Of a stretch of 32,055 bases of DNA, positions 12,111 to 30,003 are shown one piece after another (position 1 is the stretch's first letter; every line of letters starts with the position of its first letter). The stretch is taken from contig JAFWRC010000003.1 of assembly GCA_017508825.1 (NCBI GenBank), positions 1 to 32,055 on the forward strand, given 5' to 3'. Below the pieces are notes generated by a model. The model did not search any database. It saw nothing but the letters and a program-made list of their open reading frames with translations, and had not been told where the DNA came from. The stretch comes from Lachnospiraceae bacterium (lineage in GTDB: Bacteria > Bacillota > Clostridia > Lachnospirales > Lachnospiraceae). Position numbers and translations under genes: made by a program.

Positions 12111-14363
12111 ATGCGCGTGAGCAAAAAAGATACCGAAAAGAAGATCGAGGCGCTGCTTCGGGAGCTGACTTTGGAGGAGAAATCCCGGATGATCCATGCA
12201 TCCGAATTTTTCCGCTCCGGCGATGTGCCGAGGCTGGGCATTCCGAAGATCACAACCTCGGACGGGCCTATGGGCGTGCGGAACGATTTTCATCCGGCGG
12301 ACTGGCATCCGGTGGGAACCTCGGCGGATGCAGTGAGCTATCTGCCCTGCAATACGGCGATCGCATCGACCTGGAACCGCGAACTGGCGCGTATGTCCGG
12401 TGAGGTACTGGGCCGTGAAGCCAGAGGACGCGGCAAGGATATGATCCTGGCGCCCGGCATCAATATCAAGCGCAATCCGCTGTGCGGACGTAATTTTGAA
12501 TATATGAGCGAGGATCCGTACCTGATCGCGGAGATGGTGGTGCCGCTGATCGAAGGCATCCAGGAGAACGATGTATCCGCATGCGTGAAGCACTTTGCCT
12601 GCAATGCCCAGGAGTGGGAGCGGCTGTGGGTCAATGTGGAACTGGACGAGCGTACCCTGAGGGAGATCTATCTGCCGGGCTTTGAGGCGGCGGTGAAACG
12701 CGCAAAGACAAAGGCGCTGATGGGCTCTTATAACCTGGTGCGCGGCGAGCATGGCAGCCAGAGCAAATTTCTGCTGACCGATATTTTACGCAAAGAATGG
12801 AAATACGACGGTCTGGTGGTTTCCGACTGGGGCGCGGTACATGATACCAAAGCGGCTGCGGAGAGCGGGCTGGATCTGGAGATGAGCGTGTTCCCGAATT
12901 TTGATGATTACTATCTGGGAAAGCCGGTGATCGAAGCCGTAAAGAAGGGCGAGATTAAAGAGGAAGACCTGGATAAGAAAGTGCGCAACATCCTGCGCTT
13001 TATGCTGCGGGTGCGCATGATCGAGATCGAGCTGACGGAAAAGAAGAACGGCAGGACCGCGGCAAAGGCCGTGCCGGTGGAAGACCGTGATCCCGGCTAT
13101 TACAACGGATCGGCAATGCACTACTTTGCAAAGCAGACTGCAAGGGAAGCCGTGGTGATGCTAAAGAATGAGAAAAAACGTCTGCCGATCAAGCCGTCAA
13201 TGACAAAGCGTCTGCTGGTGATCGGAAACAATGCGGATAGGAAGCAGTCCAACGGCGGCGGCAGCGGCGAGATCAAGGCGCTGTACGAAGTGACACCGCT
13301 GATGGGCCTGACCCGGGAGTATGGCGGCAATACGGAAGTGCGTTACACACCGGGCTATTATGTTCCGAAGAAGACAAAGGAAGATACCAGCTGGCAGGAA
13401 GATAGCGTATCCGCAGAGATCATGTCGGATCCGTCCGTACGCGACAAACGCAAGGTGGCGGCAGAAGAGAAAAAGCGGATCAAAGAGTACCGGGAAGAAG
13501 CAGTACGTTTGGCAAAGGAATACGAAGAAGTGGTGATCGTGGGCGGTCTGGATCACAACTACGATACCGAGGGCATGGACCGCAAGGATCTGAAGCTGCC
13601 GTATGCGCAGGATGAACTGATCAATGCGGTGCTGGCGGTAAATCCCCGGGCGGTGGTCGTGATGTTTGCCGGCAGCCCGGTGGATATGACGGCCTGGAGT
13701 GACAAGGCACAGGCGATCCTGTGGATGGCCTACAACGGTATGGAAGGCGGTACGGCGCTGGCGGAGGTGATCAGCGGTACGGTCAATCCGAGCGGGAAAC
13801 TGCCGGAATCCCTGCCATCCGATTTTAAGAAAACTTCGGCAGCGGTCTTCGGCGATTATCCGGGACGCAAGCTCACTGCGGCGGAAAAGAAAAAGATGAA
13901 CGCCACCATGACCCAGACCTTTAAGGATGGTGTGTTTGTGGGCTACCGCTTCTATGAGAAGTTTGATGTACCGGTGCAGTACGAGTTCGGTTACGGCTTG
14001 TCCTATACGGAATACAAATACAGCGGTATGACGGTGGAGAAGGCAAAGGGCAAAGATGCGCTCTTTACCGTGAGCATCAAGGTAAAGAACACCGGACACG
14101 TTGCCGGAAAGGAAGCGGTGCAGCTGTACGTGGGGGAAAAGGCGGTTTCCGAAGCCAATCCCGTCAAGGAACTGAAAGGCTTTGACAAAGCGGAACTGGC
14201 CCCGGGGGAGGAAAAGACGGTGAAGTTTATGCTCACCGCAAAGGACTTTTCCCACTTCGACAACGAAACGAACACCTGGCAGCAGATGAAGGGAAAGATG
14301 GTCATTTACATCGGCGCTTCCAGCAGGGATATCCGGGCGAAAAAAGAAGTAACACTGAAATGA
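12111..14363 (+). CDS. Glycoside hydrolase family 3 (beta-glucosidase-like), cytoplasmic
   Basis: This 750-aa enzyme has the three usual GH3 parts. They are an N-terminal barrel with ITTSDGPMGVR and KHFACNAQEWER, a nucleophile Asp239 in LVVSDWGAVHDT, and an alpha/beta sandwich domain (about 335-600, VVIVGGLDHNYDTEGMDR). A fibronectin type III-like C-terminal domain ends the protein (about 655-745). No signal peptide is present. It would release single sugars from the non-reducing end of oligosaccharides, completing the work of the preceding GH5. AAGGAG before the ATG and the 94-base gap without a promoter support cotranscription with GH5. The exact sugar specificity cannot be read from sequence. 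Confidence 0.95.
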   Translation: MRVSKKDTEKKIEALLRELTLEEKSRMIHASEFFRSGDVPRLGIPKITTSDGPMGVRNDFHPADWHPVGTSADAVSYLPCNTAIASTWNRELARMSGEVLGREARGRGKDMILAPGINIKRNPLCGRNFEYMSEDPYLIAEMVVPLIEGIQENDVSACVKHFACNAQEWERLWVNVELDERTLREIYLPGFEAAVKRAKTKALMGSYNLVRGEHGSQSKFLLTDILRKEWKYDGLVVSDWGAVHDTKAAAESGLDLEMSVFPNFDDYYLGKPVIEAVKKGEIKEEDLDKKVRNILRFMLRVRMIEIELTEKKNGRTAAKAVPVEDRDPGYYNGSAMHYFAKQTAREAVVMLKNEKKRLPIKPSMTKRLLVIGNNADRKQSNGGGSGEIKALYEVTPLMGLTREYGGNTEVRYTPGYYVPKKTKEDTSWQEDSVSAEIMSDPSVRDKRKVAAEEKKRIKEYREEAVRLAKEYEEVVIVGGLDHNYDTEGMDRKDLKLPYAQDELINAVLAVNPRAVVVMFAGSPVDMTAWSDKAQAILWMAYNGMEGGTALAEVISGTVNPSGKLPESLPSDFKKTSAAVFGDYPGRKLTAAEKKKMNATMTQTFKDGVFVGYRFYEKFDVPVQYEFGYGLSYTEYKYSGMTVEKAKGKDALFTVSIKVKNTGHVAGKEAVQLYVGEKAVSEANPVKELKGFDKAELAPGEEKTVKFMLTAKDFSHFDNETNTWQQMKGKMVIYIGASSRDIRAKKEVTLK

Positions 14364-14400
14364 TCATTGCTTAGATGATCTGAGAACATTTACGAACATC

Positions 14401-14432
14401 AAAGGGCGTTCTGCAGGCAGGACGCCCTTTTT
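14401..14432 (+). terminator. Intrinsic terminator of the DGC-GH5-GH3 operon
   Basis: AAAGGGCGTTCTG (14401-14413) pairs with CAGGACGCCCTTT (14418-14430) over 13 bp with one wobble, closing a 4-base loop. Five T residues end it (14428-14432). Confidence 0.93.
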
Positions 14433-14495
14433 ACGAGTTATGAGGGAAACGACATGAAAAACGGAAAAAACGACATAAAGATAAAGAATAAACAG

Positions 14496-14525
14496 TTGCT
14501 AAAATGCGATAATAAGACTTATAAT
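14496..14525 (+). promoter_or_regulatory. Sigma-A promoter of the SPFH/zinc-ribbon six-gene operon
   Basis: TTGCTA (14496-14501) and TATAAT (14520-14525) are 18 bp apart in an AT-rich stretch. The site is about 55 bp before the SPFH start and directly behind the terminator of the previous operon. Confidence 0.68.
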
Positions 14526-14580
14526 AATAAGTTAAAGAAGTAACCGTTGTATTTTTTCATTGTTATTCAGGGAGGAAAAG

Positions 14581-15939
14581 ATGGGATTATTTCAGAGTAC
14601 GAACCCGAAGGAAAAAGAGCATAAGGGGATCCTTGGGGCGTTTTCCGTTGATGTGATCAAATGGGAGCCGGAAGCAGGCAGGGAAGCGGATCTGATCAGC
14701 TTCAAGTTTCCGTATGAGGATTTTCCGAACGGCAGTTTTCTGATCGTTGCACCGTCCCAGATGGCGGTGTTCATCAATAATGTGGATACCGGAAGCGCAT
14801 TGAATGCAGAGGGCGGCACTGCGCAGGTATCGGTATTTGCAGGCCCCTGCAAGATCAAGCTGGATACCGGGGACAGCCGTTTTGCGCCGTTCCGCAATAT
14901 CAGCCATAAGCTTACGGGAGGCGAGTCCGCTTTTCACAGCGAGGTATTTTTCTTAAATACCACGTATATGAATGATCTGAAATGGGGTACCCAGAACCCG
15001 GTCGTGGTGGAGGATCCGGAGGAGGAAGTGAACATTCACGTCCGGGCCCAGGGTCTGTTCGGCGCGCACATTGAGCAGATGGACAGCACGGTTTCGGCAG
15101 TGCAGGCCAGAAAATTCCTGCAGAAGGTGGTCGGGACCAAGGCACAGTACACCCGGGAAGAACTGGTACAGTATATGCGTGCAAAGATCCTGGAGTATGT
15201 ACCGGATCTGCTGGCCAAGAATATGGTGGACCAGCACGTCGGCATCCTGAAGATCAGTACACATCTGAGTGATTTTTCGCAGATCATTCAGGCGAAGCTG
15301 ACTTCATATTTTGAAGAGTTCGGCTTAACACTGGACAATTTCTCATTTACCAATATCAATGCGCCGGATGAAGATCTGGCTGCGATCAATGAGATGAAGA
15401 TCCGCCGGAAGCAGAAGTTCCTGGAGGCGGAAGGCAACGCGCAGCAGATGGATATCGAATCCGAAGCCAGAATGCGCATGCGTCAGCGGGAAGGCTATAC
15501 CTATCAGCAGGAGCAGTCCTTCAATATCATGAATGCGGCAGCTTCCAACGAAGGCATGAGCGCCAATCTGATGGGCGCAGGCATGGGACTGACCATGGGG
15601 CTTGGCATGGGCGGAAGCATCGGCGCCGGAATGGGAGCCGTGGCACAGTCCGCTATGGGTAATCCGGCACAGATGATGCAGCCGCAGTCCGCGGCAGCGT
15701 CCGGGGTTCAGAAATGCAAGGCCTGCGGAGCACCGCTGGATCCGGGAGACGGCTTCTGCGCCGGCTGCGGAGCACCGGTGGAAAAAGCCGCATGCTGCAG
15801 CAACTGCGGCAAGGAACTGAAGCCGGGTGCACTGTTCTGCACCGGCTGCGGACAGAAGGTCGGAAAGAAGTGCCCGAACTGCGGCGAAGCTGCGGAACCG
15901 GGAGAAAAGTTCTGTGCGAAGTGCGGAACAGCTTTGTGA
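14581..15939 (+). CDS. SPFH-domain protein with three C-terminal zinc ribbons (YdjI-like)
   Basis: This 452-aa soluble protein starts with an SPFH/band-7-like core (about 1-310), similar in layout to Bacillus subtilis YdjI (MGLFQSTNPKEKEHKGIL at the start, FTNINAPDEDLAAINEMKIRRK near the end of the core). A Met/Gly-rich flexible stretch (about 320-370) follows. Residues 379-452 carry three CxxC...CxxC zinc ribbons, the first using Cys379, 382, 393 and 396. SPFH proteins oligomerise on membranes and organise lipid or protein microdomains. YdjI is held at the membrane by YdjG and YdjH, whose likely equivalents are at 26841-30003. AGGGAGGA at 14569-14576 sets the start at 14581. It is the first gene of a six-gene operon. 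Confidence 0.88.
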   Translation: MGLFQSTNPKEKEHKGILGAFSVDVIKWEPEAGREADLISFKFPYEDFPNGSFLIVAPSQMAVFINNVDTGSALNAEGGTAQVSVFAGPCKIKLDTGDSRFAPFRNISHKLTGGESAFHSEVFFLNTTYMNDLKWGTQNPVVVEDPEEEVNIHVRAQGLFGAHIEQMDSTVSAVQARKFLQKVVGTKAQYTREELVQYMRAKILEYVPDLLAKNMVDQHVGILKISTHLSDFSQIIQAKLTSYFEEFGLTLDNFSFTNINAPDEDLAAINEMKIRRKQKFLEAEGNAQQMDIESEARMRMRQREGYTYQQEQSFNIMNAAASNEGMSANLMGAGMGLTMGLGMGGSIGAGMGAVAQSAMGNPAQMMQPQSAAASGVQKCKACGAPLDPGDGFCAGCGAPVEKAACCSNCGKELKPGALFCTGCGQKVGKKCPNCGEAAEPGEKFCAKCGTAL

Positions 15940-15955
15940 TCGGAGGTAAGGAAGG

Positions 15956-16633
15956 TTGAAAAAACATTTTTCTGTAGTTTTCGGGGCAGCGGCTCTGCTC
16001 TGGGTATTGGCAATGCTTTTCCTGGTAAAAGGAACGGGCTTCACCTTTGTGTGCGCGCTGGTATGCGGCATCCTGGTGTACCTGATCGCCATGGCCGGAT
16101 ATCTGTGGGCGCATAAGCAGCAGAAGGATGCGGAAGCGGAATTATCGAATGTTACTTATGTGATCCTGCTTGGCTATGCAGCAGCCGGCACGGTGATCAA
16201 TGCCAGATTCTGTATGATGAAGTGGGAAGAGGTCGGTATGCTGCTCCTGATCGCGAACTTCGTGATCACGATCGCAGCGGTCGTGCTGGTCCCGGCTTCC
16301 GTAAACAATGCAAAGAAGGGACAGCAGCTGGCAGACGAAGTGCGTGCCCGCACGGCTCCGACTGCCCTGTATTCTTCTACCATCGCATCCCTGATGGCAG
16401 CGGCAAAAGACGATGAGGTACGCAAAGAACTGAAGAAACTGAAAGAGACCGTGGACTACGGTACCAATGTGTCCCGTGTCGATCCGGAGGAAAAAGAGCA
16501 GGCGTTTACAGAGAAGCTGATGGATATCGAGGCACAGTTAAAGGACGGCGCGGCAGCTGATGCGGTCATTGAAAACATCCGCGAAGCGATCCGGCTGTAC
16601 CAGTCCAGAAATGCGTCTATGCAGACACTGTAA
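15956..16633 (+). CDS. Four-helix membrane protein with cytosolic helical tail, unknown function
   Basis: I do not recognise the family. The 225-aa protein has four predicted membrane helices (about 7-24, 28-50, 66-83 and 92-114), then a charged, helix-rich cytosolic tail (115-225, rich in Lys and Glu and probably coiled). Translation starts at a TTG codon, supported by GGAGG at 15942-15946 nine bases upstream. It lies 16 bases behind the SPFH gene and 15 before the zinc-ribbon gene, so it is an operon member. It could be a membrane receptor for the soluble SPFH protein, which has no membrane helix of its own; that is inference. Confidence 0.85.
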   Translation: MKKHFSVVFGAAALLWVLAMLFLVKGTGFTFVCALVCGILVYLIAMAGYLWAHKQQKDAEAELSNVTYVILLGYAAAGTVINARFCMMKWEEVGMLLLIANFVITIAAVVLVPASVNNAKKGQQLADEVRARTAPTALYSSTIASLMAAAKDDEVRKELKKLKETVDYGTNVSRVDPEEKEQAFTEKLMDIEAQLKDGAAADAVIENIREAIRLYQSRNASMQTL

Positions 16634-16648
16634 CAGAGGTGACGGCGC

Positions 16649-17461
16649 ATGGAGATGGGTGCAGGATTAAGCTGTAACGGATGCGGGAGCACAGACGTCA
16701 TTTTTGACCCGGTGAAGCGGCTGCTGATCTGCAATCAGTGCGGAAAACAGGAGTTTTATTCACGGGCTACGCTGAACCGGAACGGAAAGGTCATTTATTG
16801 CAAGGAAAATGCGGTCAGTCAGTTCACGGAAGCAAGATATGCGGATGCCAGACATTTTGCGCTGGATGTCCTGAATATCTCCGTCGAAAATATCCCCGCC
16901 CGGTTTATCATCGCATTTTATAATGATGTGGAGGGGAAAGAAGCCGGACAGCTGAAAGAATTCTTTAACGCGATGAAAGCAGAGGCCCTGGACTATGATG
17001 AGATCCGGGATCTGCAAAAACTGATCGCGGCTTCGCTGCCGTATCTTTCCGAATATGAGAAGGATATCATTACGATCTCGGCAGCCAATATGCAGGCGGA
17101 TGAGGACAAAAAGGAACTTTGTGAATTCATAGATAAGATGTGTCCTTATTTTATCGCCAAGCGGTCATCTTCCGGATTTCTGGATCCGGAGATGGTGGAA
17201 ATGTACGGGGATCTTGCGGAACACTGCGATATTCCCAAAACATGTTTTTCGCTGCTGAAGTCCATAGAGACCAATCCGGATTCGCCCTATAAAGGCAATA
17301 CGTTCGCAATGCGGACGCAGACCCGGTATTTTTATGAAAACTTCGTGGTTCCCGTGGGGAAGATCATCGAACGTATGGGATCGCCGGAGTGGAAACAGAA
17401 GTTTTCGATGACCTATCAACAGAAAAACCGGAAATTTCAAAGTGATGCAGGGATGATGTAA
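16649..17461 (+). CDS. Zinc-ribbon protein of unknown function (270 aa)
   Basis: The N-terminus holds one zinc ribbon with Cys9, Cys12, Cys28 and Cys31 (CNGCG...CNQCG). The rest (about 60-260) is a helical, soluble region that I do not recognise. No membrane segment or enzyme motif is visible. AGAGGTG before the ATG and the short spacing on both sides place it in the SPFH operon. Zinc ribbons also occur in the first gene of this operon and in the protein at 26841, suggesting shared protein-protein contacts within one system. Confidence 0.82.
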   Translation: MEMGAGLSCNGCGSTDVIFDPVKRLLICNQCGKQEFYSRATLNRNGKVIYCKENAVSQFTEARYADARHFALDVLNISVENIPARFIIAFYNDVEGKEAGQLKEFFNAMKAEALDYDEIRDLQKLIAASLPYLSEYEKDIITISAANMQADEDKKELCEFIDKMCPYFIAKRSSSGFLDPEMVEMYGDLAEHCDIPKTCFSLLKSIETNPDSPYKGNTFAMRTQTRYFYENFVVPVGKIIERMGSPEWKQKFSMTYQQKNRKFQSDAGMM

Positions 17462-17484
17462 CCTGCAGCGGAAAGGAAGGAAAC

Positions 17485-19140
17485 ATGGCAGATGTAGCAT
17501 CAGTAAACGTAAGTTCACAGTTAAGTGGTATCGAAAGTTCCCTGAGCATTCTTTCGGAGAATACACGGCAGCTCGGGGAGCGGATGAATGATGTTGACAG
17601 AAAGATGAATAATACTCTGGCGCAGCTTGAGGCACTGAAGAAGGATTTCCTCAGGATGATGGATGAGCAGCGCAAGGAAGCGGAATTTCAGAGGGCGACT
17701 ACGGAGCTGGTGCGTGTGCGTCAGGAACTGGAGCAGAAATTCGGCAATTACAAGGTGGTCCGGGATACCATGCTCGGTGTGCTGCAGGCGACCGACGCCA
17801 AACTGGTAAGACAGACCACCATATCAAAGGTATCGGAAGAGCTGATGCTTTCCACGCCGAAGTACTGGCTGGCGCCCTGCCTGATCGCGGTTGCGGCCTG
17901 GATCGGTAATGACAGGGCTCTTGCGGATCGTGCCATCAGCGAGGCGATGCGCAGGGATACGAAGAGAACTGCGCTCTGCATGGCACTGGTGTGCCGCAGA
18001 AACGGCAGAGAGGACACCTGCTTTGAATGGCTGTCTCTGTATTTCTCCAAACTGGATGCCAGAAACTTCTCGGATCTGGAGTTTTCCTTTGTGGATGCCT
18101 ATGTAAACGGCGTATTCGGTGAGGACCGGAAACACCGCTGTGACGATTATATCGCCAACTGGATCAATGAGATCCGTGACACCACGGAGGACTTTGAAAA
18201 GAAACAGGTGGAGCAGTGGGACGAGATGCTCCGTCTGTATGTGCAGCCGATGGACGGACACTATCCGGCGCTGAAGAAAAACGTGAAGGAATTCGGGCGA
18301 ATCGATGATTATCTGGGACGGATCTGTGCATCGGGATCGGTGGAAACGGCATTTGACAATCTGGCAAAAGCGCCGGTAGATCAGACCCAGCTGGTGCGCG
18401 GGATCGATGAGCGTCTGGTACAGCTGGTCAGCGATTATGCGCAGGAGGAAAAACCGCTGCGGGATCAAGAAGAAGAACTGACGGCCATTAAGGCATACCG
18501 CGGAGACGTGTTTACCGCACAGAAGGTAGTGGAAGGCGCGCGGAGGCTCAAAAAGGCACAGAAGATGGACATGGTTGCCAAAATGACCGATGTCATCTCC
18601 GGAGGAAAGGGACGTGCCATCTCTGAAAGAAAGACGGCGATCTCTTTTTTGAAGAATTATATCAATGACGGCTATGACCGTTTCCTGGATGAGAAGAGCG
18701 AGGCATTTCCGACGCAGATCAGCATCGGTATCGACGGCTGGACGGGAAATACAGTAGACGGTTCCAACGAGACGCAGCTGCTGGATGATTACGAGAAGTA
18801 TATGGATGGTCTCCGTCAGCAGAAGGTGGATGCGGTAAATATGAAGCCGGGGCTTCCCTGGTTTATCGGCGCCGGAGTACTGGGAGTGTTCGGCCTGTTT
18901 ATGATCCCTCACGGAGTGATCCTGGTGCTCCTTATGCTGCTTGGCGCAGGAGCAGCCGGCGGGTACGGATATCTGCAGAATAAAAAGGCGATACAGACCG
19001 TGGAGAGTATTAATAACGAATACAAAGAACTGATCGCCAAAGGCAAGGGCGAGATCCTGATCACCGAGAAAGAGTGGCTGGATGTACGTTCGAAGGTATC
19101 TGAGTTCCGCAGCAAAGAGCGTAAGAAGCTGGTCGCATAA
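17485..19140 (+). CDS. Large coiled-coil protein with C-terminal membrane hairpin, unknown
   Basis: This 551-aa protein is not recognised. Residues about 10-90 are a predicted coiled coil (heptad-like SILSENTRQLGERMNDVDRK). The middle (100-440) is a long soluble helical region with many Cys, Trp and Arg residues. Two hydrophobic segments at about 457-473 and 476-494 form a likely membrane hairpin separated by PHG. A charged cytosolic tail ends the protein. It has no Walker A or other nucleotide-binding motif, so it is not a dynamin-type GTPase despite the similar overall shape. AAAGGAAGG at 17472-17480 fits the start. It may be the structural scaffold of the operon; that is inference. Confidence 0.82.
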   Translation: MADVASVNVSSQLSGIESSLSILSENTRQLGERMNDVDRKMNNTLAQLEALKKDFLRMMDEQRKEAEFQRATTELVRVRQELEQKFGNYKVVRDTMLGVLQATDAKLVRQTTISKVSEELMLSTPKYWLAPCLIAVAAWIGNDRALADRAISEAMRRDTKRTALCMALVCRRNGREDTCFEWLSLYFSKLDARNFSDLEFSFVDAYVNGVFGEDRKHRCDDYIANWINEIRDTTEDFEKKQVEQWDEMLRLYVQPMDGHYPALKKNVKEFGRIDDYLGRICASGSVETAFDNLAKAPVDQTQLVRGIDERLVQLVSDYAQEEKPLRDQEEELTAIKAYRGDVFTAQKVVEGARRLKKAQKMDMVAKMTDVISGGKGRAISERKTAISFLKNYINDGYDRFLDEKSEAFPTQISIGIDGWTGNTVDGSNETQLLDDYEKYMDGLRQQKVDAVNMKPGLPWFIGAGVLGVFGLFMIPHGVILVLLMLLGAGAAGGYGYLQNKKAIQTVESINNEYKELIAKGKGEILITEKEWLDVRSKVSEFRSKERKKLVA

Positions 19141-19170
19141 CGGAAGGATCGGAAAGGAAGGGATAACCGT

Positions 19171-19338
19171 ATGAGTGACAATATGGATATGGAAATGGAC
19201 GGCATGGATGAACTGGAGGCGATGTTCGGCCAGGAGAATCCGGAAACGGAGCAGATGGAGAAAGTAGTGCTTGAGCAGAACCTGAAGGGGTTTGCAAGCT
19301 GCTTTCCGGAGTGGGATCTGCATCCGCCGGTAGACTGA
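19171..19338 (+). CDS. Small acidic protein (55 aa) in the SPFH operon
   Basis: A 55-codon ORF fills the gap between two operon genes. AAAGGAAGGG (19153-19162) is correctly spaced before its ATG, so it is very likely translated. The first half is Met-, Asp- and Glu-rich (MSDNMDMEMDGMDELEAM). The second half is a short helix followed by a distinctive FPEWDLHPPVD end with a Cys just before it. It has no membrane segment. The aromatic-proline tail looks like a peptide that docks onto a partner protein, perhaps as an adaptor or small regulator within the SPFH complex. No family is recognised. Confidence 0.78.
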   Translation: MSDNMDMEMDGMDELEAMFGQENPETEQMEKVVLEQNLKGFASCFPEWDLHPPVD

Positions 19339-19356
19339 TCGGAGATGGGGAAAACT

Positions 19357-20511
19357 ATGGATAACGCAGCAATGACGGGAGCAGCCGTCAAGAAGGACAC
19401 AACAGCAACAACATATTTAAAGATCATAGGGATCTTTGCAGCACTGATCCTGGTGACTGTGGGAGCGGCATTTCTGATCACGGGATTTTTTTCAAGCCGC
19501 AGGGGATCTCCGATGAAGCGCGGTGAAGATGCTATGGCGGAGAAGAACTATACGCTTGCTATAGCATCATACCGGGAAGCGCTGAAGCAGGATCCGAAGA
19601 ATGTCAAGGCTTACGAGGGGATCGTAGCAGCGTATGAAGCACAGGGCGATAATGATGCGGCACTGCATATGCTGGAGAAGGGCTTTGAAAAGACCGGGGA
19701 TGAAAACCTGGAGAGCCGGATGGAAACCCTGCGGGATTCCATCGGTCCGGTGGTCCTGAGCGGGGGGAGCGGCACACTGCAGAATCCGGAACTCGGTCCC
19801 GGGGAAACCGCCAGACAGCGTCAGGTCGAACTGCTGGAAAAAGCGTATGATCTGCTTTCCAAACAGGATTATATCGGTATGTGCAGTGTGGACGGTTCCT
19901 ATGAAGCGGATCTGGTGATCGACGAGCTGAAGGGGGATCACGTGATCTACATCCCCGAGGAAGGCAGTCACGGAACCGGGACAGGCTGCGGCATATACCA
20001 GGTAAGCGGCGGATACTTCTTCTATTACGGTGATTTTGTGGACGGGGAACGCGTAGGGCATGGCGTGTCCTACTGGTATAACGGCAGCGGGTATGAGACC
20101 TATGCAGGCGAATGGAAGGATGATGCGCCTAACGGAAACGGTACCGAAACACTGTACTATGACTATGGTGAAACCACTATCCGGACCGGAACCTTCCGGG
20201 ACGGGCTGGAGGATGGCGATTTCACCATAGAGATTTCGCAAAGTTACAGCAGCGATGTCAAAACAGGGGAATATCATGTGAACTACGGACGCCCGCAGGA
20301 AGCGACGGAAAGATTGCAGGAGATCGTTGCACAGGTCGAGGCGGATATGGATGCAGGAAAGACCGTAGATCCTGATCTTCAGACCATTTATGATGATTAC
20401 CAGTATTATCAGATGTACGGTGACGAAGATATCTATCTGATCTACGAGGATAATTCTTATGAGACCTATTATCGTTACTCGAGTCTGTTCGGAGCATTGG
20501 GCTACCGCTGA
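19357..20511 (+). CDS. Membrane-anchored TPR-MORN protein
   Basis: This 384-aa protein has one N-terminal membrane helix (about 20-44). A TPR-like pair follows (about 53-120, AMAEKNYTLAIASYREALKQ and YEAQGDNDAALHMLEKGFEK). MORN repeats lie at about 215-300 (YYGDFVDGERVGHGVSYW, YAGEWKDDAPNGNGTETL, RTGTFRDGLEDGDF). TPRs bind proteins; MORN repeats are small beta-hairpins often associated with membrane or protein scaffolding. The C-terminus is rich in Tyr and Asp. An ATG at 19345 directly abuts the GGAG and is too close to it, so I prefer the ATG at 19357. It is the last gene of the SPFH operon, before a strong terminator. Confidence 0.85.
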   Translation: MDNAAMTGAAVKKDTTATTYLKIIGIFAALILVTVGAAFLITGFFSSRRGSPMKRGEDAMAEKNYTLAIASYREALKQDPKNVKAYEGIVAAYEAQGDNDAALHMLEKGFEKTGDENLESRMETLRDSIGPVVLSGGSGTLQNPELGPGETARQRQVELLEKAYDLLSKQDYIGMCSVDGSYEADLVIDELKGDHVIYIPEEGSHGTGTGCGIYQVSGGYFFYYGDFVDGERVGHGVSYWYNGSGYETYAGEWKDDAPNGNGTETLYYDYGETTIRTGTFRDGLEDGDFTIEISQSYSSDVKTGEYHVNYGRPQEATERLQEIVAQVEADMDAGKTVDPDLQTIYDDYQYYQMYGDEDIYLIYEDNSYETYYRYSSLFGALGYR

Positions 20512-20539
20512 TGTGTGTTTTATAAGAAAACAGAAAAAG

Positions 20540-20568
20540 CAGGAGACGTGATCCGTCTCCTGTTTTTT
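20540..20568 (+). terminator. Intrinsic terminator of the SPFH operon
   Basis: CAGGAGACG (20540-20548) pairs perfectly with CGTCTCCTG (20554-20562) around a TGATC loop. Six T residues follow. An A-run on the left pairs with the T-tract, so it may also work from the opposite strand. Confidence 0.93.
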
Positions 20569-21418: not shown

Positions 21419-21447
21419 TTGACAGAAATAAAGCATATTGATATCAT
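21419..21447 (+). promoter_or_regulatory. Sigma-A promoter of the second SPFH operon
   Basis: A consensus TTGACA (21419-21424) is followed after 17 bp by TATCAT (21442-21447). The -10 element lies inside a perfect palindrome. Confidence 0.72.
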
Positions 21448-21513: not shown

Positions 21514-22515
21514 ATGGGAACGAATGTACAGGAAAGAATCATTAAAGGACACAAGAATGGCGGGCTGGTATTGATCATCAGCATCCTGCTGTACCTGGTA
21601 GCGATCCCGGGGCTTGCATTCGGAGGTGTAGTTACTGCGATCTGTATACTCTGGCTGTGCCTGGGCTGGATCACCTGGCTGGGACTGAAGGTTTTGAAAC
21701 CGAACGAGGCTCTGGTACTTACACTGTTCGGCAAATATGTAGGCACACTGGTTGGCGACGGTTTCTTCTGGGTAAACCCGTTCTGCACCGCATTCAACCC
21801 GGCAGCAGGCACCAAGCTCGGACAGAGCGGTGACGTAGCGGTAAACAAATCGGCGGTTACGGTGACCGCACAGGGCGCCACGGTATCCACCGATGCGTAC
21901 AGCAAGAAGATCTCACTGAAGGTGATGACGCTTTCCAACAGCAAGCAGAAGGTCAATGATGTACTGGGTAATCCGGTCGAAGTGGCAGTAGCGGTTATGT
22001 GGAAAGTAAAGGATACCGCAAAGGCAGTATTTGAGGTAGACAACTTTAAGGAGTATCTTTCCCTGCAGGTAGATATCGCGCTCAGAAACGTAGTTAAGGT
22101 TTATCCGTATGACGTGACGGACAACGTGGACACCACAGGTGACGGTATCGTTGATGACGGCAGCCTGCGCGGATCCACCGAGCTGGTAGCAAAGAAGATC
22201 AAGGAAGAGATCCAGAGCAAAGTAACCGATGCGGGTCTGGAGATCGTGGATGCACGGATCACCTATCTGGCATATGCGCCGGAGATCGCAGCGGCAATGC
22301 TGCAGAGACAGCAGGCAGCAGCGGTTGTAGATGCAAGAAAGCTGATTGTCGACGGTGCCGTAGGTATGGTAGAATTGGCTTTGGAACGACTGAATGAGAA
22401 ACAGACCGTAGTGCTGGATGAGGAGCGGAAAGCGGCTATGGTATCGAACCTGCTGGTAGTGCTTTGCGGCAATCACGACGCACAGCCCATAGTAAATTCA
22501 GGCAGCCTGTACTGA
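21514..22515 (+). CDS. SPFH/band 7 membrane protein
   Basis: This 333-aa stomatin-like protein has two adjacent N-terminal membrane helices (about 17-36 and 38-58). The SPFH domain follows (about 60-260: VLKPNEALVLTLFGKYVGTL, DGFFWVNPF, AVAVMWKVKDTAKAVFEVDN, LEIVDARITYLAYAPEIAAAML). A helical tail rich in Ala and Gln typically drives oligomerisation. Such proteins form ring or cage assemblies that partition membrane proteins and lipids. It differs from the SPFH protein at 14581, which has zinc ribbons and no membrane helix. AGGAGGG at 21500-21506 sets the start. It leads an operon with an RHH regulator, a putative peptidase and a thioesterase. Confidence 0.93.
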   Translation: MGTNVQERIIKGHKNGGLVLIISILLYLVAIPGLAFGGVVTAICILWLCLGWITWLGLKVLKPNEALVLTLFGKYVGTLVGDGFFWVNPFCTAFNPAAGTKLGQSGDVAVNKSAVTVTAQGATVSTDAYSKKISLKVMTLSNSKQKVNDVLGNPVEVAVAVMWKVKDTAKAVFEVDNFKEYLSLQVDIALRNVVKVYPYDVTDNVDTTGDGIVDDGSLRGSTELVAKKIKEEIQSKVTDAGLEIVDARITYLAYAPEIAAAMLQRQQAAAVVDARKLIVDGAVGMVELALERLNEKQTVVLDEERKAAMVSNLLVVLCGNHDAQPIVNSGSLY

Positions 22516-26840: not shown

Positions 26841-29150
26841 ATGAATGCTTGTCCGAATTGCGGTGCGGAATTAAAATTTGACATTCAGTCGCAGATGCTG
26901 GCTTGTCCGTTCTGCGGTGCTAAAGTCGATCCGGCAAGCTATACGGAGTTCGGCGCTGCGGCAGACGAAAACCATATTTCCATGGCAGAGGCTGCTTCGA
27001 TCGAGGAAGGGATGGCGGCGGATGTGCTGCATGCTTCCCAGGTGGTGAACACCGTGCAGAGCGGATATGAACAGCCGGGACAGAATGCGTACGGGCCGCA
27101 GGGGTCCGGCATTCTCGGTCCTTCCGGCGGCACGCAGGGAAGCGGTATGCTCGGGCCTTCCGGCAGCTTTGCGTCTTCCGGCGGAGCGACCTTTGCCGGC
27201 GGCAATTTTATGAGCCAGGGAACCGGGATGAGTGGAAGTTTTGCATCCCAGGGAGGAACTGCGCCGTCCGGCGCCGGTTTTGCAGGGGCGGGGAGCAGTG
27301 CAGTCGGCGCAGCCGGCAGCTTTGCATCCCAGACCGGAGCGGCTCCGGTAGCCGGTGGTTTTATGCAGCAGGGACCGGGTGGCGGCATGGGCGGCAGTAC
27401 CGGTTTTGCGGCAGAAGGCGCTTCGACGGCGGCAGCAGCGCAGACTATGGCAGCGGCATCGTTCCTCGGTTCGGTCGCAGCTGCGGAAAATGCAGCGGTC
27501 GGCGGAGGAAATGCGGCATATGCAGGCGGGGGACAGCCCCAGCCGGTGATGAACAACGGCGCAGTTGTGTATACGCAGCAGGGGATGGCCGGACCGGCGC
27601 AGCCGGCATCGGAAGAACCGCTGGATCCGAATTTTGACCCCACGGCCAATTATCAGGAACTGGAGGTCATTTCCTACAGTTGTCCGCAGTGCGGCGGCAG
27701 CATTTATTCCACGGACGAATCCGTGAACGGTTTCTGCAGTTTCTGCGGATCCAATATCACGCTGCAGTCCCGTATGGCCAGGATGAAGTATCCGAAGTAT
27801 GTCCTGCCGTTCCGCGTGAACAAAAATGCCTGCAAGCAGTATTATCTGAATCATGTAAAGAAAGCATTCTTTGCGCCGAAGGAACTGAAGAATCCGGAAT
27901 ATCTGGAGCGTTTCCGCGGGATCTATATGCCGTACTGGGGCTATGATGTGATGATGTACGGCAATGTGCTGCTGCACGGCACGAATTCTTACCGCAGGGG
28001 CGACTATATCATCACGGAGCATTACAACTGCACCGGTCTGGTCGATGCATTCTATAAAGGCCTTTCCTATGATGCATCGTCCTCGTTTGACGATCATTTC
28101 AGTGAGCAGATCGCGCCTTATGACGCACACGCCATGATCGAGTTTAATCCGGCGTACCTGAGCGGTTTCTACGCAGATCTGCAGGATGTCTCTTATCACG
28201 TATACGAAGAAGATGCGATCCGCTTCGGGCAGAAGCAGATCTTAAAAAGCATCCGCCAGAAACATTGTTTTCCGAGAGTGTCGTTTTCGGAAAACCAGGA
28301 GCAGATGATCCACCCGACGATCGATGCGCGGCATGACGGTGTATATACCGCATTCTTCCCGGTATGGTTTCTGTCCTACCGGAATAATGACCGTATCGCA
28401 TACGCGGTCGTGAACGGACAGACGGGCAAACTGATCAGTGATCTGCCGGTGGATAAGAAGAAATTCATCCTTTCGGCATTCCTGATGTCGATCCCGATCT
28501 TTATCCTGCTGATGATGCTGCCGGTCATGCGGCCGGCCGGCATGGTACTTCTGGCAGAGGTATTTTCGGTCATATCCGTCGTTATGCTGACGAATACGGT
28601 AAAGAAAGTCCTGATCCGGGACCAGCGTCTGGATGACCGCGGTTATCTGAGCAAGTATGACCGGGTGAATTTTAATGCGCAGAAAGCAGAGGCGGCCCAA
28701 AAGGCCAAAAAACAAAAGACGATAAGCGGCAGTGCGATCGCATTCATAGTGCTGTTTTGTGCCTTTGGTCCGCTGGCATCGCTGGCAGGAGATGTGTTTG
28801 AAGCGTTTTTCAGCGGGAACAGTTTCGGAATGGCAGCCATTGCATTGATCCTGGCGGTTGTTCTCGTAGTCATCAATTTAAGCGGCACAAAAGCGGTCCG
28901 GGAGCTGGCGGCAAAAGGAAGCGAAATGCTGATCACCGGGATCTGGCTGATCTGCGCCGCCTGTCTGTACGGCGGTGTCGTGATGCTGTTAAATCCGGTG
29001 AGCGATATCCCGTATTATATCGGTGTGGTCATATTGTTTGCGGGAACACTGATGGCGCAGCTGATGGCACTGGAGCAGTACAATATGCTTACGACCAGAC
29101 CGCTGCCGCAGCTGAACCGGAAGGGAGGTGACGACAGTGCGCAGGATTAA
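26841..29150 (+). CDS. Double zinc-ribbon multi-span membrane protein (YdjG-like)
   Basis: This 769-aa protein begins with a zinc ribbon (Cys4, Cys7, Cys22, Cys25) of the type often mislabelled TFIIB or helicase. A long low-complexity Gly/Ser/Ala/Gln linker (about 75-255) follows, then a second ribbon (Cys281, 284, 299, 302). After it come a soluble domain (about 310-535, FRGIYMPYWGYDVMMYGNVL) and six hydrophobic segments between about 542 and 745. Ribbon plus membrane helices next to a TPM gene matches Bacillus YdjG, which helps hold the SPFH protein YdjI and PspA at the membrane. The protein here is much longer. AAGGAG precedes the ATG. The next gene overlaps its end by 14 bases. Confidence 0.85.
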   Translation: MNACPNCGAELKFDIQSQMLACPFCGAKVDPASYTEFGAAADENHISMAEAASIEEGMAADVLHASQVVNTVQSGYEQPGQNAYGPQGSGILGPSGGTQGSGMLGPSGSFASSGGATFAGGNFMSQGTGMSGSFASQGGTAPSGAGFAGAGSSAVGAAGSFASQTGAAPVAGGFMQQGPGGGMGGSTGFAAEGASTAAAAQTMAAASFLGSVAAAENAAVGGGNAAYAGGGQPQPVMNNGAVVYTQQGMAGPAQPASEEPLDPNFDPTANYQELEVISYSCPQCGGSIYSTDESVNGFCSFCGSNITLQSRMARMKYPKYVLPFRVNKNACKQYYLNHVKKAFFAPKELKNPEYLERFRGIYMPYWGYDVMMYGNVLLHGTNSYRRGDYIITEHYNCTGLVDAFYKGLSYDASSSFDDHFSEQIAPYDAHAMIEFNPAYLSGFYADLQDVSYHVYEEDAIRFGQKQILKSIRQKHCFPRVSFSENQEQMIHPTIDARHDGVYTAFFPVWFLSYRNNDRIAYAVVNGQTGKLISDLPVDKKKFILSAFLMSIPIFILLMMLPVMRPAGMVLLAEVFSVISVVMLTNTVKKVLIRDQRLDDRGYLSKYDRVNFNAQKAEAAQKAKKQKTISGSAIAFIVLFCAFGPLASLAGDVFEAFFSGNSFGMAAIALILAVVLVVINLSGTKAVRELAAKGSEMLITGIWLICAACLYGGVVMLLNPVSDIPYYIGVVILFAGTLMAQLMALEQYNMLTTRPLPQLNRKGGDDSAQD

Positions 29151-30003
29151 AGATACAGTCAAAGGAATAAGAATACCCTTGTCATTCATCGCTCTGCTGT
29201 TCGTTTTTTGCCTGGTCCTGCCGTTGACGGCACAGGCCAAAGATGACGATGATAGTGATGATACCGGCTATTACAAAGAGTATACCAATGCGGAGACCGG
29301 TTATACGGCGATCCTTTATGATGAGGCGGATGTTCTGAAAGATTCGAACGAATCCAAGATCCTTGACCGGCTCCGTGATATCACGAAATACGGCAATGCG
29401 GTCTTTTATACTGCGGAAGGAAGTTCGCAGGTGAGTGACAGTCAGGCTTCACGGATGGCGGTGAACTATTATGAAAGTCATTTCGGTTCGCGTTCGGACG
29501 GTGTGGTCGTTGCCGAGATTATGTTTACGGACGGATCGGGCAAGTGCATGCTTTGGGTCGAAACATTCAACGGGGTACACAGCAAAGTGTCAAATTCGGA
29601 TTGCGATTCGATCGCGGACAATGCAGTCCGCAGGCATTCGGGCGACGGTATCCCGGCAAAGTATTTCGGTTATGCGGATGAAACTCTGTCGCAGATCATG
29701 AGGCGGCTGGAGGGACAGAAGATCGCGCAGCCGATGAAATGGGTCACCAGCGCTCTGCTGGCACTGATCCTCGGACTTCTGATCAACTTTATGGTGGTGG
29801 CCGGCTTTAACCGGAAGAAGACACCGAGACAGAATGAGGTATTGGCCGGTCTGGTGACGCAGTTTAACATCACCGATCCGCAAATGGTAATGACACATAC
29901 CGACAGGAAATATTCTCCGAGATCCTCAAGCAGCAGCGGAGGCGGCGGCGGAGGCGGAGGAGGGGGCGGCGGCTCCCACGGCGGAGGCGGTCATGTGGGC
30001 TGA
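29137..30003 (+). CDS. TPM-domain membrane protein (YdjH/YgcG-like)
   Basis: This 288-aa protein starts at GTG 29137, eight bases behind GGGAGG. An earlier GTG at 29128 overlaps that site. An N-terminal hydrophobic segment (about 10-35, LSFIALLFVFCLVLPLTAQA) acts as signal or anchor. The TPM domain follows (about 60-200, YDEADVLKDSNESKILDRL, SDGVVVAEIMFTDGSGKCML). A second membrane helix lies at about 210-235. The tail has a run of 12 Gly and ends in GGGGHVG, a habit of this family. TPM domains face the outside; their enzymatic role is unsettled. The overlap with the zinc-ribbon gene implies coupled translation, as for ydjG-ydjH. Confidence 0.88.
   Translation: MRRIKDTVKGIRIPLSFIALLFVFCLVLPLTAQAKDDDDSDDTGYYKEYTNAETGYTAILYDEADVLKDSNESKILDRLRDITKYGNAVFYTAEGSSQVSDSQASRMAVNYYESHFGSRSDGVVVAEIMFTDGSGKCMLWVETFNGVHSKVSNSDCDSIADNAVRRHSGDGIPAKYFGYADETLSQIMRRLEGQKIAQPMKWVTSALLALILGLLINFMVVAGFNRKKTPRQNEVLAGLVTQFNITDPQMVMTHTDRKYSPRSSSSSGGGGGGGGGGGGSHGGGGHVG

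What the first reader, a model, noticed from the sequence alone, without database searches (positions are those of the whole stretch)
14496..20568. Compact six-gene SPFH/zinc-ribbon/MORN operon with several unrecognised proteins
One promoter and one terminator enclose an SPFH protein with three zinc ribbons, a four-helix membrane protein, a single-zinc-ribbon protein, a 551-aa coiled-coil protein with a membrane hairpin, a 55-aa acidic protein and a membrane TPR-MORN protein. Gaps are only 15-30 bases. Four of the six belong to no family I can name. Scaffold domains and membrane anchors without a visible enzyme suggest a membrane-organising machine, possibly an undescribed complex.
Basis: partly seen in the sequence, partly recalled or inferred. 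Interest (0 to 1): 0.85.

Follow-up and report, generated by a model that had tools for sequence, protein, structure and literature searches.

The report
Five-gene bacterial membrane complex
Five neighbouring genes encode what looks like one membrane-attached protein complex, most of whose parts current libraries do not recognise; relatives of its central pair of proteins also occur, rarely, on a satellite phage, plasmids and another mobile element, which hints at a role in microbial conflict.

Summary
The six genes are there, and five (A SPFH-zinc-ribbon, B membrane protein, C zinc-ribbon, D 551 aa, E 55 aa) form one conserved unit: the order A-B-C-D-E, with gaps of 7-38 bases, recurs in 5 of 5 intact type I loci. 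In one 200-genome family sample full-length C, a close A and the type I D occur in the same two genomes. F (TPR-MORN) follows E by 6 bases but is not conserved. D is the key: its relatives stand with an E-like gene, a double-AAA ATPase and two small families (F5, F10) in 5 of 5 named records, one of them a Streptococcus satellite phage. E ends in a motif (FAxGLPxWD[LIM]xPP and variants) that elsewhere forms D's own C-terminus. A degenerate DNA pattern for this tail hit one viral contig, which carried the whole core. Best reading: E's tail docks on membrane scaffold D, and this operon is an SPFH-equipped, ATPase-less branch of an undescribed, sometimes mobile system, probably for envelope stress or conflict. 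One system: strong. Docking and function: inferred; structure prediction was off.

The parts
14496..14525 (+). putative sigma-70 promoter TTGCTA-18-TATAAT
   Evidence: 10 of 12 matches, but the scan count is not above shuffles; well placed upstream of A
14581..15939 (+). gene A, 452 aa: SPFH (Band_7_1) domain plus three C-terminal zinc ribbons, no membrane segment
   Evidence: 59 and 69% identical in L014 and L015
15956..16633 (+). gene B, 225 aa (TTG start): membrane protein with a hydrophilic C-terminal part
   Evidence: profile match to the B-like protein of type IIa clusters, E 2.9e-16
16649..17461 (+). gene C, 270 aa: N-terminal zinc ribbon plus an unrecognised domain
   Evidence: full-length match in 2 of 200 family genomes, both with the operon
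17485..19140 (+). gene D, 551 aa: coiled coil, conserved body, C-terminal hydrophobic segment(s)
   Evidence: family seen in 26 loci examined
18862..18987 (+). predicted membrane hairpin of D (about residues 460-500)
   Evidence: hydropathy peak 2.54 at residues 468-486; hairpin form and boundaries are an estimate
19171..19338 (+). gene E, 55 aa acidic protein
   Evidence: same place after D in 5 of 5 intact type I loci
19306..19328 (+). DNA encoding the conserved tail PEWDLHPP of E
19345..20511 (+). gene F, 388 aa: membrane-anchored TPR-MORN protein; probably co-transcribed but not part of the conserved unit
   Evidence: no gene of its cluster in the other 20 loci
20540..20562 (+). intrinsic terminator (could work on both strands)
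   Evidence: z -3.9

Best explanation
A-E encode one membrane-attached complex. Shown by comparison: the five genes are kept together, D and E go together in nearly every locus seen, and D-E relatives stand in larger gene sets with AAA and sometimes HerA ATPases. Inferred: D, anchored by its C-terminal hydrophobic segment, is the scaffold; the tail of E (FAxxxPxW[DS][LIM]xPP) docks on D, because D is the only protein common to all versions and in solo versions the tail sits on D's own end; A forms an SPFH assembly that, like YdjI of Bacillus, is held at the membrane by partner membrane proteins (here B and D); C and the zinc ribbons of A are adaptor surfaces; F is a lineage-specific accessory in the slot after E. 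The operon is thus the SPFH-equipped, ATPase-less branch of a broader, sometimes mobile D-E system, whose likeliest role is a response at the cell envelope to stress or attack (phage or toxin).
For: Synteny A-B-C-D-E in the window, L014, L015, L071 and L072, 5 of 5 intact type I loci; a decayed sixth in L080. Type I D forms one side of a branch with support 100/100 (5 rows). In one 200-genome family sample: D in 4 genomes (two of them type II, 25-29% identical), full-length C in 2, A at 69-100% in 2 (other matches of 300 residues or more are 39% or less); the two are G000 and G042 each time. E tail pattern: 2 of 299 family genomes, the same two. Motif regex in 14 of 349 called genes of 21 loci, all 14 being the gene after D or D itself. 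Core F10/D/E/F5/AAA in 5 of 5 named records and in the one viral contig found by the tail pattern. SPFH and B-like genes stand with D, E, F5 and AAA in L017 and L075 and so link the two versions. Between L071 and L072 pN is 0.09-0.26 while pS is 0.79-0.90, saturated. YdjI is likely soluble and needs YdjG/H for the membrane (PMC8581546, abstract and passages).
Against: No structure or interface could be predicted. C is not shown to be homologous to the type IIa protein in its place beyond the zinc ribbon. The motif regex fails in 3 of 26 D loci: L076 and L077 lack the motif, L074 has it with an extra residue. The 26 include near-copies (L081/L082 of one genome; L087/L090 with the same proteins). 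The regex also met three antisense ORFs in the named records, not at their ends. Mobile carriage is rare: D in 4 of 72,556 plasmid records and 1 of 50,697 phage records, and the Fusobacterium 'plasmid' is a 2.1 Mb record, probably a chromosome. Nothing measured says what the complex does; the window operon lies among ordinary chromosomal genes and no defence island was shown. A complete same-genus genome (G004) has no match to D, C or A, so the unit is dispensable.
Confidence: 0.5

Rival explanations
1. Anti-phage (or anti-mobile-element) defence proper: the D-E core senses infection at the membrane, the AAA protein or an SPFH assembly changes the scaffold, and the gene after E is a variable effector. 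(A sharper form of the best explanation; the odds overlap with it.)
For: Core carried by Streptococcus satellite phage Javan368, two Komagataeibacter plasmids (26 and 39 kb) and a viral-collection contig with several serine-recombinase-like genes (recognised by eye). D of the satellite phage clusters with D of the window's order-mates. The gene after E differs in each type I locus: TPR-MORN, 847-aa protein with an adenosine deaminase domain, 236-aa unknown, AraC-type regulator, tandem secreted-looking paralogues. Another SPFH-zinc-ribbon gene of the same genome lies two genes after a TIR-domain gene. The AAA domain scores with PADLOC IetA models.
Against: PADLOC has no model for D, E, F5 or F10 (a 13-bit Cas5 match to D only); IetA hits cover only the general AAA domain. 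D is rare on mobile elements. No enrichment beside known defence genes was measured. No phage test exists.
Confidence: 0.3
2. A PspA/YdjGHI-type envelope-stress complex: A is the YdjI equivalent and B-E stand in for YdjG/H.
For: A has the build described for the Bacillus band-7 protein of the pspA-ydj operon (band-7 plus C-terminal zinc ribbon; PMC11237479, passages; PMC8581546, abstract and passages). The same window holds a zinc-ribbon multi-membrane protein and a weak TPM-domain match at 26841-30003.
Against: PspA found over cut-off in 1 of 5 type I genomes. B-F show no TPM or YdjG-type domain. No relative of the window's YdjG/H-like pair was seen in the fetched flanks of the other four type I loci.
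Confidence: 0.2
3. A remnant of, or variant on, a toxin-delivery apparatus: the HerA-D-E-AAA clusters export polymorphic toxins and the window operon is a reduced form.
For: HerA-type ATPases in L016, L017 and L070. A papain-fold glutamine-deamidase domain (57 bits, over cut-off) with a possible immunity gene in L016; in L017 a gene with only a weak metallopeptidase match, below cut-off; in L070 a long acidic protein without any Pfam match, called toxin-like from place and N-terminus alone.
Against: In this genome the L017 HerA finds only one 101-residue match, no toxin was recognised near the operon, and no HerA or toxin gene was seen beside the core in the satellite phage and plasmids (L088 has no annotation).
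Confidence: 0.15
4. Unrelated genes that happen to share a transcript.
For: F is not conserved, and proteins with some match to A are common (144 of 200 genomes).
Against: Conserved order and co-occurrence of A-E.
Confidence: 0.03

Closest known systems
Bacillus subtilis PspA-YdjGHI complex
   Same: A has the build of the band-7 protein there: SPFH plus C-terminal zinc ribbon, no membrane segment, partner membrane proteins in the operon
   Different: no PspA in the operon (over cut-off in 1 of 5 host genomes), no TPM or YdjG partner found in B-F; C, D and E have no counterpart named in the passages seen
Band-7/flotillin operons with AAA ATPases described with PspA (PMC11237479, passages)
   Same: band-7 proteins next to AAA ATPases and small membrane proteins, as in type IIa clusters L017 and L075
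   Different: those operons use PspA, CesT/Tir-like and YuaF/YqiJ proteins; ours use D, E, F5 and F10, which no library searched names
Cdc48/VCP-type double-AAA ATPases and IetA
   Same: the AAA partner of the wider system matches VCP-like chains in two stretches and IetA models
   Different: no full-length match in 5 of 5 type I genomes; no convincing IetS partner (one 10.8-bit match in L017)
Polymorphic toxin systems with FtsK/HerA ATPases (T7SS)
   Same: HerA-type ATPase and toxin-like genes beside D in some clusters
   Different: window operon and the named minimal cores show neither; WXG-type proteins were not searched for

Membership tests
SPFH / Band_7_1 family (gene A) | match over Pfam cut-off to PF13421 or PF01145 | tested here: met
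   PF13421 101.9 bits (cut-off 24), PF01145 24.3 bits (cut-off 23.6)
PspA-YdjGHI complex | PspA gene in operon or genome | tested here: not met
   over cut-off in 1 of 5 type I genomes (G042); none in G000 (89.7% complete), G260, G342; below cut-off in G941; not in the operon
PspA-YdjGHI complex | YdjH TPM domain and YdjG zinc-ribbon membrane partner in the operon | tested here: not met
   none in B-F; a TPM-like and a zinc-ribbon membrane protein lie 6 kb away at 26841-30003
PspA-YdjGHI complex | SPFH protein recruited to the membrane by its partners | not testable with these tools
   A has no membrane segment; needs an experiment
Known anti-phage defence system | match to PADLOC models | tested here: not met
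   none for A, C, D, F of the window (B and E not scanned); none beyond a 13-bit Cas5 match for D, E, F5, F10 of the satellite phage; its AAA matches IetA over the AAA domain
Known anti-phage defence system | protection against phage | not testable with these tools
   needs plaque assays
Polymorphic toxin / T7SS export | FtsK/HerA ATPase and toxin-immunity pair in the locus | tested here: not met
   none recognised in the window; seen only in some relatives
D-E system defined in this report | D gene followed by, or ending in, the PxW[DS][LIM]xP tail | tested here: met
   for the window; 23 of 26 D loci by regex over

The most novel reading that the evidence does not exclude
An undescribed, sometimes mobile, cross-phylum membrane conflict system built around scaffold D and a dedicated docking peptide (FAxGLPxWD[LIM]xPP and variants) supplied in trans by a small protein E or in cis by D itself. 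Its engine is exchangeable: double-AAA ATPase with F5 and F10, HerA plus toxin-like genes, or, as here, an SPFH assembly with no ATPase, and the gene after E is a swappable effector.
Probability: 0.4. Interest if true: 0.85.

Novelty: categorically new. Interest (0 to 1): 0.7.

Why it matters
If true, it adds a membrane system with several protein families that no library searched here names, and a short, recognisable peptide signature by which the system can be found in raw DNA. The versions (SPFH, AAA, HerA) would let one ask directly how an SPFH assembly can stand in for an ATPase in working a membrane scaffold, and its presence on a satellite phage and plasmids makes a defence or interference role directly testable.

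Tried and rejected
Considered and rejected: F as a core member (no gene of its cluster in the other 20 loci); PspA partnership as a rule; a missing ATPase encoded elsewhere in type I genomes (full-length AAA match in 0 of 5 type I and 5 of 5 type II genomes tested; type I matches stay within the AAA domain; HerA was sought in the own genome only and gave one 101-residue match); homology of C with the 667-aa type IIa protein beyond the ribbon (hhalign probability 28%); filing under Iet or RADAR-like systems (AAA and deaminase hits cover only general domains).

Led nowhere: the PDB sequence search for D has coiled coils as best hits, the rest (e.g. a bacteriocin transporter, TolQ) at E above 0.04; for C, F5 and F10 nothing convincing. 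Viral-contig scans with single D proteins found none, although L093 in that collection does hold a D, so that method misses distant copies. The broad tail pattern gave 0 of 256 order genomes; the D-bearing genomes of that sample have WS, C for G, an extra residue, no second P or no motif, which the pattern does not cover, so it is no count of the system. Paper searches listed no description of the system. Rows dropped before counting D loci: weak D matches in 8 of 22 genomes and 15 of 17 (E 5e-7 to 1e-3, mostly the coiled coil). In those two searches at most three candidates per genome were scored, so D may be undercounted. Starts of genes in other loci were chosen by eye for the gap table; for A of L072 the start used is one codon too early.
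Full report
Setting. The window is one contig (C19, 32055 bases) of an incomplete genome (89.7% complete, 328 contigs). A relative of D at 53% identity comes from a record titled Lachnospiraceae, so that family is the likely host; no tool named the host.

What is there. Six same-strand genes run from 14581 to 20511. A (452 aa) is an SPFH protein of the Band_7_1 type with three zinc ribbons and no membrane segment; F (388 aa) has an N-terminal membrane segment, TPR and MORN repeats; B, C, D and E reach no cut-off in Pfam or NCBIfam. PHROGs gives only weak partial matches (A, B, C, D, F scanned) and PADLOC none (A, C, D, F scanned). A strong terminator follows F. The promoter is only a plausible one. 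The gap E-F is 6 bases, the others 15-30.

Five genes are one unit. Searching 200 family genomes with D gave relatives in four, the own genome included, and a scan of the genome collection gave one more locus (L014). Together with searches of 392 order genomes and 398 phylum genomes (14 and 2 genomes with strong matches, the own genome included in both), I examined 21 loci by gene calling and clustering, 20 of them with D. A-B-C-D-E stand in the same order and strand, with gaps of 7 to 38 bases, in the window, L014, L015, L071 and L072; L080 is a decayed sixth copy. D of these five is one side of a branch with full support. In the same 200-genome sample, full-length C occurs in two genomes only (a third has a match to the ribbon alone). 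A at 69% occurs only in G042 besides the window's own; other matches of 300 residues or more are at 39% or less, though 144 of 200 genomes have some match. The two are the type I genomes. The E tail, sought as a DNA pattern, occurs in 2 of 299 family genomes, once each, again the same two. A complete genome of the same genus (G004) has no match to D, C or A, so the unit is patchy even among close kin. Between L071 and L072 silent sites are saturated while 74-91% of amino-acid-changing sites are unchanged, B being the fastest; a dN/dS ratio could not be given.

F is outside. The gene after E is a TPR-MORN protein here, an 847-aa protein with an adenosine deaminase domain in L071, a 236-aa unknown in L014, a run of related secreted-looking proteins in L072 and an AraC-type regulator (by eye) in L015.

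D and E are the heart of something wider. In L016, L069, L070, L073, L074 and L083, D is followed by a tail-bearing protein (63 to 260 aa where called), the F5 family and, in five of these six, a AAA ATPase, with F10 in the same five (L074's contig ends after F5); L016, L017 and L070 also have a HerA-type ATPase. In L017 and L075 an SPFH-zinc-ribbon gene and a B-like gene (profile match E 2.9e-16) stand in the same cluster as three D copies, E, F5 and the AAA gene, which ties the SPFH version to the AAA version. tblastn of D gave 4 of 72,556 plasmid records and 1 of 50,697 phage records, so mobile carriage is real but rare. All five carry F10, D, a small tail gene, F5 and the AAA gene: Comamonas (643 kb), Fusobacterium (a 2.1 Mb record, probably a chromosome), two Komagataeibacter plasmids of 26 and 39 kb with the same D protein, and Streptococcus satellite phage Javan368. 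With the phage's host these are three phyla. The phage's D sits among D of the window's order-mates, so the core has probably moved between hosts. The L083 contig is short and its D is close to that of Comamonas; it may be a contaminant of its genome.

The tail motif. The protein after D ends with variants of FAxGLPxWD[LIM]xPP (type I: FASCFPEWDLHPP). A regular expression for the core of this motif hit 14 of 349 called genes in 21 loci, and all 14 were the gene after D or, in four solo D genes (two of them copies in one genome), D's own last residues. Counting tails found in uncalled frames, 17 of 20 D loci of that call have it, plus 5 of 5 named records and L093: 23 of 26. L074 has it with one more residue, seen by eye; L076 and L077 lack it. 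The pattern was made from the motif, so this count is descriptive. The more independent test is the scan of the viral contigs with a degenerate DNA pattern of the tail, which returned a single contig; that contig holds D, E, F5, AAA and F10 near several serine-recombinase-like genes (the latter by eye). The same pattern gave no hit in 256 order genomes, so it has few false positives, but it also misses known variants. Three antisense ORFs in the named records matched the regex away from their ends.

No ATPase found for the window's version. A profile of the system's AAA protein finds full-length relatives in 5 of 5 type II genomes and in 0 of 5 type I genomes, where matches stay within the AAA domain. 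The AAA profile matches VCP/Cdc48 chains in two stretches.

Mechanism. Shown by comparison: unit, pairing, motif, wider context. Inferred: the tail docks on D, since D is the only protein present in every version and the tail can be part of D; D is a membrane scaffold by its hydrophobic C-terminal segment and coiled coil; A is an SPFH assembly held at the membrane by its partners, as reported for YdjI with YdjG/H (PMC8581546, abstract and passages). The role is open: occasional mobility and the variable gene after E favour conflict, the SPFH protein favours envelope stress. Both can be one thing, a response to attack at the envelope. The odds given for the best reading and its rivals overlap.

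Known kinds. PMC11237479 (passages) describes band-7 proteins with PspA, TPM and AAA proteins; in the passages seen nothing like D or E is mentioned. PspA is over cut-off in 1 of 5 type I genomes. The polymorphic-toxin survey (PMC3482391, passages) and the conflict-system survey (PMC7159879, passages) did not show this gene set in what I saw. That the system is not in print rests on the listings in an open-licence library only, and on the absence of models in the libraries searched, so a description elsewhere is possible.

Noticed in passing
window 26841-30003: A 769-aa zinc-ribbon protein with several membrane segments and a protein with a weak TPM-domain match (just under cut-off) overlap by 23 bases; they resemble the YdjG/YdjH pair, but no PspA was found in this incomplete genome.
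   Followed up: partly
window 21514-22515: A second, different SPFH gene (Band_7, 84 bits) with an N-terminal membrane segment lies 1 kb after the operon behind a promoter-like site (11 of 12) at 21419-21447.
   Followed up: no
L018 252-5362 (own genome, C128): Another SPFH-zinc-ribbon gene stands two genes after a 963-aa protein with TIR, TPR and DUF6273 domains and a weak zinc-ribbon match; SPFH-zinc-ribbon proteins may be partners of conflict genes more often.
   Followed up: partly
L016 13076-14263 and L070 (oriented) 13194-15533: Two proteins between the AAA gene and F10, one with a papain-fold toxin domain, share an acidic N-terminus with repeats of the form xFxDCx[LIK], perhaps a recognition signal (by eye).
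   Followed up: no
L072 11429-17011: Six related, secreted-looking proteins of 214-269 aa (one cluster) stand after E, with one unrelated gene among them.
   Followed up: no
L094 7393-13671: G522 has a further cluster with two genes of the same AAA family and no D match; each AAA gene follows a 222- or 291-aa gene, and those two resemble each other by eye.
   Followed up: partly
L017, L075: Three diverged D copies per cluster with one E gene seen; the third D follows the AAA gene directly.
   Followed up: no
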